Made by a program: the position numbers and the translations under genes. A stretch of 64,000 nt of DNA from an uncultured Acetobacteraceae bacterium (GTDB lineage: Bacteria > Pseudomonadota > Alphaproteobacteria > Acetobacterales > Acetobacteraceae): positions 1-64,000 of the forward strand of contig CAIYDT010000117.1 of assembly GCA_903924985.1 (NCBI GenBank), written 5' to 3'. Shown in pieces: positions 32,324 through 38,410 of this stretch (its first letter is position 1; the number at the start of each line of letters is the position of its first letter). The notes beneath the pieces were generated by a model. It saw only the letters and a program-made list of their open reading frames with translations. It made no database searches and had not been told where the DNA came from.

Positions 32324-33343
32324 CTATCCCTTATCGTGCCCCACCCGCACCAACAGCTTCCCGAAATTTTGACCGCCGAGAATCCCCGCCAAAGCCGCCG
32401 GCGCCTGTTCCAGCCCCTCGTGGATATCTTCCCGGTAAATCAGGCTCCCATCCGCCACCCAAGGTGCCGCCATCTCCCGCCACTCGGTCAGCCGCGCCGG
32501 CCGGTCGGACACGATGAAGCCCTGGATAAGCACGGCTTTCCCCACCACAAACCCCAGATTGGGGCCAGGCGGAAACACGTCCTCATTGTACTGCGACACC
32601 ATCCCGCACATCGCGACCCGAGCATGGCGGTTGAGCTGGTCGAACACCGCCGCTTGCACGGCGCCGCCGACATTCTCAAAATATCCGTCGATGCCGTCCG
32701 GGCAGGCGGTCTTCAACTCGAAAGCAAGGTCGATCGAACGGTGATCGACGCAATCGTCGAAGCCCAGGTTGTCCTGCACCCATAGGCATTTCTCCGCCCC
32801 GCCGGCGACGCCGACGACCCGAGCCCCTGCCCGCTTCGCCAACTGGCCCGCGACCGAGCCCACCGCGCCGGACGCAGCCGAAATCACGATCGTTTGGCCT
32901 TTCCGCGGCTTGATGATCTCCGTCACCCCGGCATAGGCCGTGGCACCGGGCATCCCCAGCACGCCCAGGTACGTGGACGAGGGCACCCCAGCCGGCACCT
33001 TCACCAGCCGATCCCCCGGCGTCACGGAATGCGTCTGCCACCCCCGCGACCCAACGACCACGTCGCCCACGGCGAAGCGGGGATCGGCGCTGGCGATCAC
33101 CTCCCCGACCGTCTCACCCGTCATGACTTCGCCGATCTGAATGGCGACGGCGTAGGTCTGTTCCTCCCGCAGGCGTCCGCGCATGTACGGATCGATCGAC
33201 AGCCATAACGTCCGCGTCACCACCTCCCCTGCCTTGGGCTCGGGGATCAGGTCCTGGACGATTTCGAAATCGCCGGGGCTGGGCTCGCCGGAGGGGCGGC
33301 GTTTCAGGACGACGGATTGGCGCAGTTGGTTGTTTCCGGACAT
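32324..33343 (-). CDS. NADP-dependent MDR-family oxidoreductase (CurA / leukotriene B4 dehydrogenase-like)
   Basis: 339 residues, zinc-independent medium-chain reductase: 'TLWLSIDPYMRGRLRE' (family hallmark), cofactor motif 'VISAASGAVGSVAGQLAKRAGARVVGVAGG', 'DGIDGYFENVGG', and 'IQGFIVSDRP' near the C-terminus. Such enzymes reduce the C=C bond of alpha,beta-unsaturated carbonyls with NADPH. It follows the zinc alcohol dehydrogenase gene by 4 bases on the same strand. Confidence 0.92.
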   Translation of the reverse strand: MSGNNQLRQSVVLKRRPSGEPSPGDFEIVQDLIPEPKAGEVVTRTLWLSIDPYMRGRLREEQTYAVAIQIGEVMTGETVGEVIASADPRFAVGDVVVGSRGWQTHSVTPGDRLVKVPAGVPSSTYLGVLGMPGATAYAGVTEIIKPRKGQTIVISAASGAVGSVAGQLAKRAGARVVGVAGGAEKCLWVQDNLGFDDCVDHRSIDLAFELKTACPDGIDGYFENVGGAVQAAVFDQLNRHARVAMCGMVSQYNEDVFPPGPNLGFVVGKAVLIQGFIVSDRPARLTEWREMAAPWVADGSLIYREDIHEGLEQAPAALAGILGGQNFGKLLVRVGHDKG

Positions 33344-33347
33344 GGCG

Positions 33348-34421
33348 TTACGCAGCCTCCGCTTTCAGGACCAGACGACCGGTGACCTTGCCGTCGCGCA
33401 GACGCATCAGCGCGGCGTCGGCTTCTCGCTGGGGCACGGTTTCGATCGGCAGGGCTTGCAGCTCACCAGCCTGCGCCAGGGCCACCAACTCCCGCAACTC
33501 CTTCGGATTGCCGACGTAGCTGCCCTGCACCGTCAGGGCTCGGATTGCCATGATCGGCAGCGGCAGCATCAGCTCGCCGCCGAACAGCCCGACCTGCACC
33601 AGCTTGCCGCCTTTGCGCAGCGCGGCGAAGGCGAAGCGGGCGGTGGCGGTGCCGTTCACCAGATCGACCACGGCCAGCACGGGGCCGCCGGCGGCCTCGG
33701 TGATGCGGGCGGTCACACCCTCCCCGCTGCCATCGACCACCTTCGTGGCACCGGCCGCGAGGGCGGCGGCGCGCTTTTCGGCGCTGATATCGACGCTGAT
33801 AATGTTCTTGTGCTTCAGGGCCTTCAGCACCGCGATGGCGTTCAGCCCGAGGCCCCCTGCCCCGACCAGCACTATGGCCTCGGACGGGGTGTAACCCGGG
33901 GTCGCCATGGCCTTCTTGATGCCGGAGAAAACCGTGATCCCCGAGCACGCGTAGGTCGCGGCAAGGGCCGGATCCAGCGTGCCGGGATCGACCAAATGTC
34001 GTGGATGCGGCGCCACCACATGCGTGCCGTAGCCGCCGTTCTGGTAGACGCCCAGACTGCGCGCCGCGACGGTGCACATGTTGTCCTCTTCCGCGAGGCA
34101 GGTGGCGCAGGTGCCGCAGCCCAGCCAGGGAAACACGATGCGCAGGTCGCCGACCTTCACGCCCTTGGCGTCGGGGCCGAGCTTCACGACACGCCCGACG
34201 ATCTCGTGCCCCATGGCAAGCGGCAGGGTCACGCCGCGATCCACCAGCGACATCTTCTGGCCACCGCCGATGTCGTAATACCCCTCCCAGATATGCAAAT
34301 CGGAGTGGCAGACGCCGCAATGGGTGACCTCGAGCAGCACCTCGGTCCCCTTCGGCTCCGGTGTGGGGAGTTCGATTTCCTTCAGGGGCTTCCCGTTTTC
34401 GACGACGGCCCAGGCGCGCAT
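33348..34421 (-). CDS. Zinc-dependent alcohol dehydrogenase
   Basis: 357 residues: catalytic zinc motif 'CGVCHSDLHIWEG' and 'LAMGHEIVGRVV' (GHE), structural zinc cysteines in 'LGCGTCATCLAEEDNMC', Rossmann motif 'VLVGAGGLGLNAIAVLKAL' with 'ISVDISAEKR' suggesting NAD. It oxidises primary or secondary alcohols. It forms a two-gene operon with the MDR reductase, a pairing that could reduce both C=C and C=O of one substrate (inference). Confidence 0.92.
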   Translation of the reverse strand: MRAWAVVENGKPLKEIELPTPEPKGTEVLLEVTHCGVCHSDLHIWEGYYDIGGGQKMSLVDRGVTLPLAMGHEIVGRVVKLGPDAKGVKVGDLRIVFPWLGCGTCATCLAEEDNMCTVAARSLGVYQNGGYGTHVVAPHPRHLVDPGTLDPALAATYACSGITVFSGIKKAMATPGYTPSEAIVLVGAGGLGLNAIAVLKALKHKNIISVDISAEKRAAALAAGATKVVDGSGEGVTARITEAAGGPVLAVVDLVNGTATARFAFAALRKGGKLVQVGLFGGELMLPLPIMAIRALTVQGSYVGNPKELRELVALAQAGELQALPIETVPQREADAALMRLRDGKVTGRLVLKAEAA

Positions 34422-34455
34422 GATGGTTCTCCGGTGTGCTTGTGCGGGGGTATGG

Positions 34456-34473
34456 TTAGCGCGTGGGCGCTAA
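34456..34473. repeat. Short perfect inverted repeat upstream of the alcohol dehydrogenase
   Basis: TTAGCGC (34456-34462) and GCGCTAA (34467-34473) around GTGG, about 35 bases upstream of the dehydrogenase ATG. It could be a transcription-factor operator or the transcript end of the cassette upstream. No regulator gene is adjacent. Confidence 0.35.
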
Positions 34474-34537
34474 TTTGTCAGCCCTCCGCAAAACGCTCGG
34501 CGTCGTCGCCAATCCCGGTGACAATTATTGGCGGCCA

Positions 34538-34960
34538 CTACTCCGCTGGGAGGCGAATGATTTCGGCCAAATTTTGTATCCTCCTTCGGGTCGATGATTT
34601 GATGCCCCAAACAGCACCATGATGGACATGGCCATGATCTGGGTCCCATCCGACCTTTAAGCCCAGCCGACGCAAGGCGCCAACGTTAAGACGGGCCACC
34701 CCTTTGCTTAGACTGTTGACGTAGTGCAAGGCAGGCAACCCATCGGCAATTATCCAGGGTTCAATATCGACCGACATTCCGCCTCCGGTCGATTCCGAAA
34801 AGGCACCACTTGACACTCGCGTCCCGCCGTTGCCATCGGGGACCATTTCGTTCGGCATAATGTGCCGGACCAGGTGGTCGCCATCGTGGATCTCACGATG
34901 ATCATGAGGAACGATCTCGCCAGCCGAATCACGCTCAGGGGGTTGGCGTACGATCGGCAT
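34538..34960 (-). CDS. Hypothetical protein of a three-gene accessory cassette (DHLVRH-type)
   Basis: 140 residues, soluble, no signal peptide. Notable segments are 'HDGDHLVRHIMPNEMVPDGNGGTRVSSGAFSESTGGGMSVDIEPW' and a His-rich 'DPDHGHVHHGAVWGIKSSTRRRIQNLAEII'. From memory the first part resembles small uncharacterised proteins with a 'DHVVRY' opening found sporadically in bacterial accessory regions. I cannot name a domain. It is third in the operon, 10 bases after the previous gene, and its codons are less GC-biased than neighbouring housekeeping genes. Confidence 0.6.
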   Translation of the reverse strand: MPIVRQPPERDSAGEIVPHDHREIHDGDHLVRHIMPNEMVPDGNGGTRVSSGAFSESTGGGMSVDIEPWIIADGLPALHYVNSLSKGVARLNVGALRRLGLKVGWDPDHGHVHHGAVWGIKSSTRRRIQNLAEIIRLPAE

Positions 34961-34970
34961 ATGGGAGCAA

Positions 34971-35414
34971 TTATCCCTTCGCCACCGCCCAAATCAACTC
35001 GGCCAAGTCTCGAAAGTCGGTTGTGACTTCGATCTCCTGTTCATGACCAGAGTCATGGTTTGCGTACCAAACGGAGACCGAATTCGGTTTGGTAACTTCA
35101 ATCTCGAGGTCGGCGCTCCCGGTATGCCATTCGAGTTGCAGGGCACCGTTACCTAATGGAACGATCGCCGGGCTGTTGCCGGTCGGTGGCATGGTATAGG
35201 CCAACAGTTGGAACGCGAACAACGCCGTATCCGGGGATACCGGGCCTGAGCCGCGATCGTCCCAGTTGTCCTGCAAGTCCAGAAGTTGCTCCATCGCTCT
35301 TCGAACTACAGGGACCCAGGTAATCGTCGGCAGCGCCAACTCAGACACGGCTCCGGAAGCCACGGGGGTCATAAGCCGTTCCCCGGGCCAGACAGCACTT
35401 GTATTTGCATTCAT
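34971..35414 (-). CDS. Hypothetical protein of the TIGR04255-associated cassette ('NWDDRGS' type)
   Basis: About 147 residues, soluble. The core 'LLDLQDNWDDRGSGPVSPDTALFAFQLLAYTM' followed by 'GNGALQLEWHTGSADLEIEVTKPNSVSVWY' resembles small proteins containing a 'NWDGYGA' motif that I recall beside TIGR04255 genes. The start MNANTSAV overlaps the upstream stop as ATGA; an ATG 15 bases earlier is the alternative. No catalytic motif is visible. It is probably co-translated with the TIGR04255 gene and may form a complex with it. Confidence 0.65.
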   Translation of the reverse strand: MNANTSAVWPGERLMTPVASGAVSELALPTITWVPVVRRAMEQLLDLQDNWDDRGSGPVSPDTALFAFQLLAYTMPPTGNSPAIVPLGNGALQLEWHTGSADLEIEVTKPNSVSVWYANHDSGHEQEIEVTTDFRDLAELIWAVAKG

Positions 35415-36256
35415 TGCTTGCGCCCCCATTTGGTGTGATAAAGCGGTGACGTTATGTCTGCGAAGCTCTTGACCACATATCTTCGTCCGGCCTGTAGGAA
35501 CGCAACGGTTCCAGCGATGCTGGCTGGTTCGGGCGCTCCTCTGACAGTCAGACTCATCTGAATAACTGTTTGTCCGGTCAATAATTTACCAGGCTCCGCG
35601 CTGACGATTAGGCGGCCAAGCGGGCGTTGGTCCTCACTTTTGAGAACATATCGGAACAGCAAGTTGGCATCCTCCGGTAGACCGAGCGATTCGGCGTCCG
35701 GATGGGACAGCAGTGACCCAAACAATTCCGACATTGCGCCGTATGGCAGCTGGCCGTCTGGGACGGGGATCTGATTGACGTAGCAAATCTCGCATTGGTT
35801 CGGCGTAACGACTCCGATTTCATTATCTGTCACGAAGTCTGAAAACTGGGTCAACTTACCCTCGAACTCTGGCAGAATCTGCTCAAACCGCGGATAGGTG
35901 TCGGCATCTTTGACCTTCCGCCAGTTGTGAATGAAGCGGTCCCGTTGGATTTGCAGAACTTTCGTGCGATCGTCATTCAGAAAAAATGATCGCGGCATAC
36001 CCATGAGAACGGATGGCGAGAATGCGAATCCCGGCAACAGGCCGCCAAAAAGAGGTATCGCTTGCCCGAACGTTTCGAAGATTGGCATGATCGAAGGATG
36101 CTCCTCCGTCTGCGGATATGACTGTTCGAAGATGCGCCAAAGGCGGCCGACATATGCCGTTGTGAACTTTTCAAGGCTGTTGAACTGCACTCCTAGCACC
36201 ACTTCCGTGAGCGGAGGGTTCGAAAAATCCGGCAGGTCAATAGGCCGATTCGGCAT
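35411..36256 (-). CDS. TIGR04255-family protein
   Basis: 281 residues from MPNRPIDL. The N-terminal 'FSNPPLTEVVLGVQFNSLEKFTTAYVGRLWRIFEQSYP' is the hallmark of the sporadically distributed TIGR04255 family, and the rest of the chain fits ('VLQIQRDRFIHNWRK', 'NQCEICYVNQIP'). The function of the family is unknown. It heads a three-gene operon with 4-base and 10-base junctions, lodged between metabolic genes. Lower GC at third positions than its neighbours suggests acquisition by transfer. Confidence 0.8.
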   Translation of the reverse strand: MPNRPIDLPDFSNPPLTEVVLGVQFNSLEKFTTAYVGRLWRIFEQSYPQTEEHPSIMPIFETFGQAIPLFGGLLPGFAFSPSVLMGMPRSFFLNDDRTKVLQIQRDRFIHNWRKVKDADTYPRFEQILPEFEGKLTQFSDFVTDNEIGVVTPNQCEICYVNQIPVPDGQLPYGAMSELFGSLLSHPDAESLGLPEDANLLFRYVLKSEDQRPLGRLIVSAEPGKLLTGQTVIQMSLTVRGAPEPASIAGTVAFLQAGRRYVVKSFADITSPLYHTKWGRKQ

Positions 36257-36316
36257 TCGGGTTCCACGCGTTGTTGTGCTTAAAATGGGCACGAACTGAA
36301 CGGATGTCAAAGCGAA

Positions 36317-36349
36317 GGTGCAAACCCGACGTTAGCCAAGGTTTGCACC
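36317..36349. terminator. Perfect 10-bp-arm hairpin between the hydroxyacid dehydrogenase gene and the TIGR04255 cassette
   Basis: GGTGCAAACC (36317-36326) and GGTTTGCACC (36340-36349) pair perfectly with a 13-base loop. It lies downstream of the dehydrogenase stop (minus strand) and 60 bases upstream of the cassette start. No U tract follows. It may end the dehydrogenase transcript or act in cassette regulation. Confidence 0.45.
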
Positions 36350-36377
36350 GAATGGCTATCGAGGGGCGCACGTCTTC

Positions 36378-37373
36378 TTACCGCTTCAGCACCTCCGGAT
36401 TGGTCACCCGCACCGGTTTCCCATCCAGGAAGCCCAGCGCGTTCTCGATCATCTGCGGGTAAAAACCGTCCCAGGTCTCCTTCACGCCGTAGCCCATGTG
36501 CGGCATCAGCACGGTGTTCGGCGCGGTGCGCAGCGGATGCCCAACCGGCAGAGGCTCCCGATCGTAAACGTCCAGCGCCGCTACGATCTTGCCGGCGTTC
36601 ACCGCCGCCAGCATCGCCGCCTCATCGATGATCGGCCCGCGGGAGGTGTTGATGAGGATCGCCCCCTTCTTCATCCGTGCGATGTCGGCCGCCCCGATCA
36701 GCCCGCGCGACCGCGGCGACAGTACCAAATGCACGGAAATGGCGTCGGACTGGGCCATCAGCTCCTCCTTGGTCACCTTCGTCACGCCCATCTCGGCGCA
36801 GCGTTCGGCGGTCAGGTTCTGGCTCCAGGCAATGACGTTCATGCGCAGCGCCTTGCAGTAGGTCGCCATGTAGCCGCCGAGCCGGCCCAGGCCCATCACG
36901 CCCATGGTCTTGCCCGCCAGCCCGATACCGACCGGGACGCCCATCTGGAACGTGCCCCCGCGCATGTTGGCATCGCCCCGAGGAATGCCGCGTGCCGCTG
37001 CCAGCAGCAGGCCGAGCGATAGCTCCGCCGTCGCGGAGTCAGCGTAACCGCCGCCGGAGGTCGCGCACACCGGGATGCCGCGCGCCGTGCAGGCGGGGGT
37101 ATCCAGCGACGCATTGCGCGCGCCCGTCATGCCCATCATGCGCAATTTCGGCAGCCGGTTGATCAGGGACGCCGGCAGCGGGGTGCGCTCGCGCATCGAC
37201 AGCACGATGTCGAAATCGGCGAGTTTCGCGACGGCGTCGTCCTCATCGGCAAACGCTTCCTGGAAGATGGTGACCTCGGCGCGGGCCTCCAGCCTGGACC
37301 AGTCGGCGGCGCCGCGCGCCACGCCCTGCCAGTCGTCCAGCACCGCGACCTTGGATTTGTTGGTACCGCTCAT
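36378..37373 (-). CDS. D-2-hydroxyacid dehydrogenase family protein
   Basis: 331 residues: NAD motif GLGRLGGYMATYCKAL, catalytic Arg in 'LINTSRGPIIDEAAML', the Glu-containing 'VALDVYDREPLPVGHPLR' and the catalytic His in 'TVLMPHMGYG'. Family members reduce 2-oxoacids or oxidise D-2-hydroxyacids (phosphoglycerate or hydroxypyruvate type). The substrate is not decided. Divergent from the 3-hydroxyacyl-CoA dehydrogenase-like gene, with ~107 bases between that should hold both promoters. Confidence 0.9.
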   Translation of the reverse strand: MSGTNKSKVAVLDDWQGVARGAADWSRLEARAEVTIFQEAFADEDDAVAKLADFDIVLSMRERTPLPASLINRLPKLRMMGMTGARNASLDTPACTARGIPVCATSGGGYADSATAELSLGLLLAAARGIPRGDANMRGGTFQMGVPVGIGLAGKTMGVMGLGRLGGYMATYCKALRMNVIAWSQNLTAERCAEMGVTKVTKEELMAQSDAISVHLVLSPRSRGLIGAADIARMKKGAILINTSRGPIIDEAAMLAAVNAGKIVAALDVYDREPLPVGHPLRTAPNTVLMPHMGYGVKETWDGFYPQMIENALGFLDGKPVRVTNPEVLKR

Positions 37374-37480
37374 TGTCCCGCTCCCGTTATTCGCCAGGGG
37401 CGCAAAGTGCCGCCGGGTTGGCGCTGGCGCAAGCGGGGCTGTTGTGATCGTCTGCGCGCCGTCATTCGAAGGAGTCGCGC

Positions 37481-38410
37481 ATGCCCCAGGTCGCCGTCAT
37501 CGGAGCCGGTCTTATCGGCCGAGCCTGGTCCATCGTTTTCGCTCGGGCGGGGTTCGACGTGGCGTTGTGGGACAAGTTCCCCCAGGCCGTGCCGGCCGCG
37601 CTGGATTTCATCGCCGAGCGCCTGCCGGAGCTGAAGGAACATGGATTGCTAAAGGACGATCCCGCAACGGTCATGGCCCGCATCCGGCCTGTGGAGGCGC
37701 TGGCCGACGCGCTACGGGACGCCGAATACGTGCAGGAAAATGGGCCGGAGCGCGTACCCGAGAAGATCGCCCTGTTCGCCGAACTGGACACATTGGCTCG
37801 GCCTGATGCGGTGCTCGCCAGCTCCACCAGCGGCATTCCCGCCAGCGCCTTTACCGAAGGATTGGCCGGCCGCGCCCGCTGCCTGGTCGCGCACCCGGTG
37901 AATCCGCCCTATCTGATCCCGCTGGTGGAAATCTGCCCCGCGCCCTGGACCGACGAGGCCACCGTCGCCCGCACGCGGGAGATCATGACCCTCGCTGGCC
38001 AGGTGCCCGCCACGGTGAAGAAGGAAATGGACGGGTTCGCGTTGAACCGCCTGCAAGGGGCACTGCTGGCCGAGGCATTCCGGCTGGTCGCGGATGACGT
38101 CATCTCCCCCGTCGATCTCGACGCGCTGGTGAAGCACGGCCTCGGCCTGCGGTGGAGCTTTATGGGACCGTTGGAGACCATCGACCTGAACGCCCCCGGC
38201 GGTCTGGCGGATTACTGCGACCGGTATGGCCCACTCTACGCGAAGATGCAGGAGCAGATGACCCCGCTTGAATGGACGCCCGACCTCGTCGGCAAATTAC
38301 ATGACGCTCGGCGGGCGGAGCTGCCGGCGAACATGCAGCCGGTGCGGCAGGAGTGGCGCGACCGGCGGCTGATGGCGCTGCTGGCCCATAAACTCGGATT
38401 TCCCGGATAA
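37481..38410 (+). CDS. 3-hydroxyacyl-CoA dehydrogenase family / L-gulonate 3-dehydrogenase-like (lambda-crystallin type)
   Basis: 309 residues: 'VAVIGAGLIGRAWSIVFARAGFDVALWD' (GxGxxG with Asp for NAD), 'ASSTSGIPASAF', catalytic His in 'LVAHPVNPPYLIPLVEI', and C-terminal 'GLGLRWSFMGPLETIDLNAPGG'. The single-domain length and the 'HPVNPPYLIPLVE' motif favour the lambda-crystallin/L-gulonate dehydrogenase branch over fatty-acid oxidation FadB. ATG behind AAGGAG. Confidence 0.88.
   Translation: MPQVAVIGAGLIGRAWSIVFARAGFDVALWDKFPQAVPAALDFIAERLPELKEHGLLKDDPATVMARIRPVEALADALRDAEYVQENGPERVPEKIALFAELDTLARPDAVLASSTSGIPASAFTEGLAGRARCLVAHPVNPPYLIPLVEICPAPWTDEATVARTREIMTLAGQVPATVKKEMDGFALNRLQGALLAEAFRLVADDVISPVDLDALVKHGLGLRWSFMGPLETIDLNAPGGLADYCDRYGPLYAKMQEQMTPLEWTPDLVGKLHDARRAELPANMQPVRQEWRDRRLMALLAHKLGFPG

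What the first reader, a model, noticed from the sequence alone, without database searches (positions are those of the whole stretch)
34538..36256. Three-gene cassette of unknown function built on a TIGR04255 protein
Seen: three minus-strand genes with a 4-base ATGA overlap and a 10-base gap, framed by an upstream perfect hairpin (36317-36349) and inserted between metabolic genes, with less GC-biased codons than its surroundings. The first product has the TIGR04255 hallmark NPPLTEVVLGVQF; the second has a 'DNWDDRGS...LQLEWH' core; the third has 'DHLVRHI' and a His-rich tail. Known: TIGR04255 is a sporadically distributed family without assigned role. Inference: compact, co-translated, sporadic cassettes of unknown proteins are often immunity, toxin-antitoxin or stress modules; this could be an undescribed one.
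Basis: partly seen in the sequence, partly recalled or inferred. Interest (0 to 1): 0.72.

Follow-up and report, generated by a model that had tools for sequence, protein, structure and literature searches.

The report
Mobile three-gene TIGR04255 defence-like module
Three small genes of unknown function travel together between bacteria, phages and plasmids as one compact unit, related to an untested candidate anti-phage system, and probably act as a sensor, adaptor and toxic-effector module protecting cells or the elements that carry it.

Summary
The three minus-strand genes exist as drawn. All three recur in the same order in 72 of 80 related genomic loci (nine phyla), in three IMG/VR viral contigs and on a Mycobacterium plasmid between relaxase and coupling-protein genes. 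In the window they form a foreign island (GC 55% against 64%). Seven same-genus genomes have the two flanking metabolic genes adjacent, without the cassette. Immediate neighbours elsewhere are mostly ordinary genes, so it behaves as a stand-alone cassette. The hairpin is real but not conserved. Gene 2 is homologous to the C-terminal domain of PADLOC candidate PDC-M32A, gene 3 to PDC-M32B. Gene 1 (TIGR04255) is unrelated to the PDC-M32A N-terminus, so this is a split variant with another front component. Gene 3 folds confidently; its best, individually non-significant, fold matches are ADP-ribosyltransferase-type enzymes. In three lineages gene 3 is lost, degraded or replaced by a PIN-domain gene while genes 1-2 remain. 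Best reading: sensor (1), adaptor/antitoxin (2), toxic effector (3). No paper found names TIGR04255; function is untested.

The parts
35411..36256 (-). Gene 1: TIGR04255 family protein, 281 aa; proposed sensor component
   Evidence: NCBIfam TIGR04255 E 1.7e-16, 60.8 bits over cut-off 30; AF2 model pLDDT 92.3, no convincing fold match
34971..35429 (-). Gene 2: 152 aa (147 aa from second ATG at 35414), NWDxxGA...QxEWH domain; proposed adaptor/antitoxin
   Evidence: PADLOC PDC-M32A, profile positions 264-365 of 375, E 1.5e-11; hhalign to M32A alignment E 1.3e-14
34538..34960 (-). Gene 3: 140 aa; R32 and S63 invariant, R97 97% and H114 98% conserved; proposed effector, tentatively ADP-ribosyltransferase-like fold
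   Evidence: 11 of 66 family members hit PADLOC PDC-M32B, best 5.1e-6; hhalign E 5.6e-12; AF2 pLDDT 94.8; weak Foldseek matches to Tpt1/KptA, AvrPphF, NarE, DarT
34486..36383 (.). Approximate extent of the inserted segment, about 1.9 kb; absent between the same two flanking genes in same-genus genomes
   Evidence: Alignment to L103, where matches 33015-34485 and 36384-38391 abut; L104, L105, L107, L108, L111, L130 similar with spacers of about 0.05-0.11 kb
36317..36349 (.). Perfect 10-bp inverted repeat with 13-nt loop upstream of gene 1, inside the insert; not conserved in homologous cassettes
33348..34421 (-). Flanking gene: zinc alcohol dehydrogenase-like; ordinary host gene
   Evidence: adjacent to the other flank in empty-site relatives; name from sequence reading
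36378..37373 (-). Flanking gene: D-2-hydroxyacid dehydrogenase-like; ordinary host gene, present in 31 of 33 genus genomes
   Evidence: name from sequence reading

Best explanation
A horizontally mobile three-gene conflict module, a split relative of phage-defence candidate PDC-M32. Shown: the three genes are a conserved unit, the unit moves between loci and genomes and is carried by phage and plasmid contigs, and genes 2 and 3 are homologous to the C-terminal part of PDC-M32A and to PDC-M32B. Inferred: gene 3 is a toxic effector enzyme, possibly of the ADP-ribosyltransferase fold, held inactive by a complex with gene 2. Gene 1 (TIGR04255) is the sensor that releases it when a phage or other foreign element is detected, which stops growth or translation and so aborts the infection.
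For: Conserved order in 72 of 80 genomic loci plus viral contigs and a Mycobacterium plasmid. Empty sites in same-genus genomes and foreign composition. Phage carriage: between tail genes (L020), next to an integrase (L154), near terminase and portal (L155). Homology to PDC-M32 components. In a second, gene-2-seeded sample genes 2 and 3 co-occur in 51 of 61 loci, while the front partner varies: TIGR04255, fused M32A-type N-terminus, or other. Gene 3 is absent (L072 clade), degraded (L056) or replaced by a PIN-domain gene (L028) while genes 1-2 persist. Gene 3 keeps invariant or nearly invariant R, S, R, H, and 8 of the top 9 PDB fold matches are ART-fold proteins.
Against: No fold match of gene 3 is significant (best E 0.23 in PDB, 0.02 unnamed in BFVD; TM below 0.5), and profiles do not match RES or Tpt1. 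Immediate neighbours are mostly metabolic. The PIN replacement is a single case. I found no reported experiment on PDC-M32 itself. The roles of genes 1 and 2 rest on analogy only.
Confidence: 0.55

Rival explanations
1. Selfish addiction module: a tripartite toxin-antitoxin set that stabilises itself or its plasmid or prophage, with no phage trigger.
For: Stand-alone cassette at scattered sites, on a plasmid between relaxase and coupling-protein genes, in phages; gene 3 lost or degraded first where modules decay.
Against: Three genes with a large conserved first component of about 270 aa is more than an addiction pair needs; homology to a defence candidate.
Confidence: 0.25
2. Non-conflict accessory enzyme or signalling module (for example ligand-binding protein plus nucleotide-modifying enzyme) with a niche metabolic or stress role, spread by transfer.
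For: Mostly metabolic neighbours; gene 1's best, weak fold matches are START/PYL-like ligand-binding folds.
Against: Sporadic distribution within one genus, phage carriage at several positions, link to PDC-M32, gene 3 loss pattern.
Confidence: 0.15
3. Ordinary vertically inherited lineage operon.
For: The module is one conserved operon wherever it occurs.
Against: Only a few of 145 relatives carry it and same-genus relatives have the empty site.
Confidence: 0.02

Closest known systems
PADLOC phage defence candidate PDC-M32 (M32A + M32B)
   Same: Gene 2 is homologous to the C-terminal ~100 residues of M32A and gene 3 to M32B; same gene order.
   Different: M32A is one ~375-aa protein with an N-terminal domain unrelated to TIGR04255; here the NWD domain is a separate gene preceded by TIGR04255.
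TIGR04255 (NCBIfam sporadTIGR04255)
   Same: Gene 1 is a member over the cut-off.
   Different: The family is a single-protein entry with no role; here its members are seen as the first gene of a three-gene module in most loci examined.
CmdTAC toxin-antitoxin-chaperone anti-phage system (PMC11618068)
   Same: Tripartite module with a sensor, an antitoxin/adaptor and an ADP-ribosyltransferase effector; here an analogy of working only.
   Different: CmdC is a SecB-like chaperone; gene 1 shows no SecB match among the listed fold hits. No direct sequence comparison was run.

Membership tests
TIGR04255 | NCBIfam HMM score over curated cut-off 30 bits, near full length | tested here: met
   60.8 bits, model positions 2-251 of 252
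PDC-M32 | Full-length M32A protein (N-terminal domain plus NWD domain) | tested here: not met
   Only M32A profile positions 264-365 matched, by gene 2; gene 1 is not homologous to the M32A N-terminus (hhalign E 0.5)
PDC-M32 | M32B protein encoded next to it | tested here: inconclusive
   The window protein itself has no PADLOC hit, but 11 of 66 aligned family members do and profile comparison gives E 5.6e-12: homologous, not a direct model match
PDC-M32 | Anti-phage activity | not testable with these tools
   PDC entries are predictions; no experiment found in the papers searched
ADP-ribosyltransferase superfamily (gene 3) | Significant fold similarity | tested here: inconclusive
   8 of the top 9 PDB matches are ART-fold, but E 0.23-1.2 and TM 0.31-0.46; BFVD rank 2 is a putative RNA 2'-phosphotransferase, E 0.1
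ADP-ribosyltransferase superfamily (gene 3) | Sequence-profile match to a known ART family (RES, Tpt1/KptA tested) | tested here: not met
   hhalign E 0.19 and 0.42, short stretches only; no credible Pfam hit
CmdTAC / TAC systems | SecB-like chaperone component | tested here: inconclusive
   Gene 1 fold search lists no SecB in the top 50; no Pfam family over cut-off; direct comparison not run
Toxin-antitoxin systems in general | One gene toxic alone, neutralised by partner(s) | not testable with these tools
   Only indirect: gene 3 lost, degraded or replaced while genes 1-2 persist in three lineages

The most novel reading that the evidence does not exclude
TIGR04255 proteins are the sensors of a widespread, uncharacterised class of three-component anti-phage systems in which a constant adaptor-effector pair (NWD domain plus a new, highly divergent ADP-ribosyltransferase-like enzyme) is combined with interchangeable front ends, and occasionally with another toxin such as a PIN nuclease.
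Probability: 0.3. Interest if true: 0.82.

Novelty: new variant of a known kind. Interest (0 to 1): 0.62.

Why it matters
It gives a genomic role to TIGR04255, a family named for its sporadic distribution and, in the papers searched, undescribed. It joins that family to the uncharacterised candidate PDC-M32 through two shared components, and predicts which gene is the effector and which residues to mutate. A small, three-gene, phage-carried cassette is directly testable in a laboratory strain.

Tried and rejected
Hairpin as a conserved operator or mobility end: rejected, not enriched upstream of homologues. Promoter/terminator scan: promoter-like sites at chance level, terminator-like sites weak. 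Gene 1 as the missing N-terminus of M32A: rejected. Gene 3 as a RES or Tpt1 family member by profile: not supported. PDB sequence searches with profiles of all three genes and of M32B-type proteins: no credible hit. Defence-island context: not supported for immediate neighbours; among 143 neighbour proteins 3 match integrase, 3 Phd/YefM, 2 PIN, 2 Abi_C and 2 type I specificity families, without a control sample. Search of the phage record collection with gene 1 found nothing. The single-sequence scan of genome contigs with gene 2 and the viral scan with gene 3 found nothing; profile scans of viral contigs with gene 2 and gene 3 alignments failed for lack of conserved stretches. PHROGs has no family for the three proteins.

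Full report
OBSERVATION. The three genes, their order, the ATGA overlap (if gene 2 starts at its second ATG, 35414), the 10-base gap, the motifs and the hairpin are in the sequence as described. Gene 1 is a TIGR04255 protein over the curated cut-off. Genes 2 and 3 have no Pfam or NCBIfam match.

INSERTION. The cassette is a foreign island: GC 55% against 64% for the window, GC3 0.59-0.64 against 0.82-0.89 in four genes around it. The flanking hydroxyacid dehydrogenase is present in 31 of 33 genomes of the genus. In L103 (95% identical dehydrogenase) the left flank matches up to 34485 and the right flank from 36384, at adjoining positions, so the whole 1.9 kb is missing; L104, L105, L107, L108, L111 and L130 show the same with spacers of about 0.05-0.11 kb. 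Among 145 relatives only a handful carry gene 2 or gene 3. Same-genus G027 has the cassette at a contig end, away from the contig that holds its dehydrogenase.

CONSERVED UNIT. A scan of GTDB genomes with a gene 1 alignment returned 187 relatives; the best 80 were kept. Profile searches of the ORFs around them find gene 2 and gene 3 downstream in the same order in 72 of the 80, and in both viral contigs of that set. The eight exceptions: L024 ends at a contig edge; L059, L060, L072 and L079 form one clade; L028, L056 and L100 differ singly. Gene 1 and gene 2 ORFs overlap in 69 of 74 complete loci when the longest start is taken, and genes 2 and 3 overlap or lie 30 bases or less apart in 70 of 74. 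The tree of gene 1 mixes phyla: 17 changes of phylum label against a minimum of 8, though clustered more than chance (37 in shuffles); mis-binned MAG contigs can add to this. The set is biased towards relatives of the window's gene 1. As a second sample seeded on gene 2, whole-genome searches found matches in 19 of 399 genomes of the window's phylum, 24 of 246 of the phylum of L028 and 11 of 297 of the phylum of L038. Of 61 such loci 51 also hold gene 3; 32 of those have TIGR04255, 6 a fused long gene 2, 13 neither. The broad gene 3 profile used there was seeded from genes downstream of gene 2, but it aligns to the strict gene 3 profile with E 1.6e-20, and ten of ten tested gene 1 proteins pass the TIGR04255 cut-off.

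MOBILE ELEMENTS. Three IMG/VR contigs carry the full set: L020/L153 between a minor-tail-like hydrolase and a tail protein, L154 directly after an integrase and before ParB/DNA methyltransferase genes, L101/L155 near terminase and portal genes. A Mycobacterium paragordonae plasmid carries it between a MobF relaxase and a type IV coupling-protein gene. Immediate chromosomal neighbours are mostly metabolic, with a scatter of integrase, antitoxin, PIN, Abi_C and type I specificity hits; no control sample was run, so no enrichment is claimed.

RELATION TO PDC-M32. Gene 2 matches positions 264-365 of PADLOC PDC-M32A. Rhodococcus plasmids carry the two-gene PDC-M32A/M32B form. Profile comparison links gene 2 to the M32A C-terminus (E 1.3e-14) and gene 3 to M32B-type proteins, with the known TIGR04255-associated member left out (E 5.6e-12); 11 of 66 gene 3 family members hit PDC-M32B models directly. 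Gene 1 does not match the M32A N-terminus. So the core is the gene 2-gene 3 pair with alternative front components. PDC-M32 has been reported in Sinorhizobium prophages by annotation only (PMC12429752). No paper in the library names TIGR04255.

GENE 3. The AF2 model is confident (pLDDT 94.8). R32 and S63 are invariant, R97 and H114 nearly so in 66 sequences. Of the top nine PDB fold matches, eight are ART-fold proteins (KptA/Tpt1 five times, AvrPphF ORF2, NarE, DarT; fold assignment from general knowledge), none significant (E 0.23-1.2, TM 0.46 at most). In BFVD the best hit is unnamed (E 0.02) and the second is a putative phage RNA 2'-phosphotransferase. Profiles do not match RES or Tpt1. I treat the ART fold as a lead, roughly even odds.

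LOSS PATTERN. In the clade L059/L060/L072/L079, L072 keeps genes 1 and 2 without gene 3, and the others keep gene 1 with only the first codons of gene 2. L056 keeps only a C-terminal trace of gene 3. In L028 a PIN-domain gene starts three bases after gene 2, where gene 3 would be. These three lineages fit gene 3 being the costly, exchangeable effector. The search was seeded on gene 1, so loss of gene 1 could not have been seen.

MECHANISM. By analogy with tripartite toxin-antitoxin-chaperone defence such as CmdTAC, where a chaperone senses capsid protein and frees an ADP-ribosyltransferase toxin (PMC11618068), I propose gene 1 as sensor, gene 2 as adaptor/antitoxin and gene 3 as effector. Unit, mobility and homologies are shown; toxicity, complex formation, trigger and enzymatic activity are inferred.

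Noticed in passing
G000:C82:25034-25741 (L001:411-2235): The same genome has a second, diverged TIGR04255 gene, followed by two co-directional genes (L001:928-1482 and 411-953) that look like very diverged gene 2 and gene 3 (marginal profile matches).
   Followed up: partly
L028:3035-3433: PIN-domain (VapC-like) gene directly after genes 1-2 in a Nitrospira MAG, in the place of gene 3, with a tRNA-Ser downstream.
   Followed up: partly
L045:2167-3429: A transposase-like gene is inserted between genes 2 and 3 of an otherwise complete cassette.
   Followed up: no
L139:1064-2748: Gene 2 domain fused behind TPR-like repeats and followed by gene 3: another possible front end.
   Followed up: no
L100:5044-9408: TIGR04255 gene without genes 2-3, upstream of an HsdR-like type I restriction gene.
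   Followed up: no
L014/L015 (Rhodococcus plasmids): Two-gene PDC-M32 on mobilizable plasmids of Rhodococcus from oil and Antarctic sea ice; one copy has an IS21-like element nearby.
   Followed up: partly
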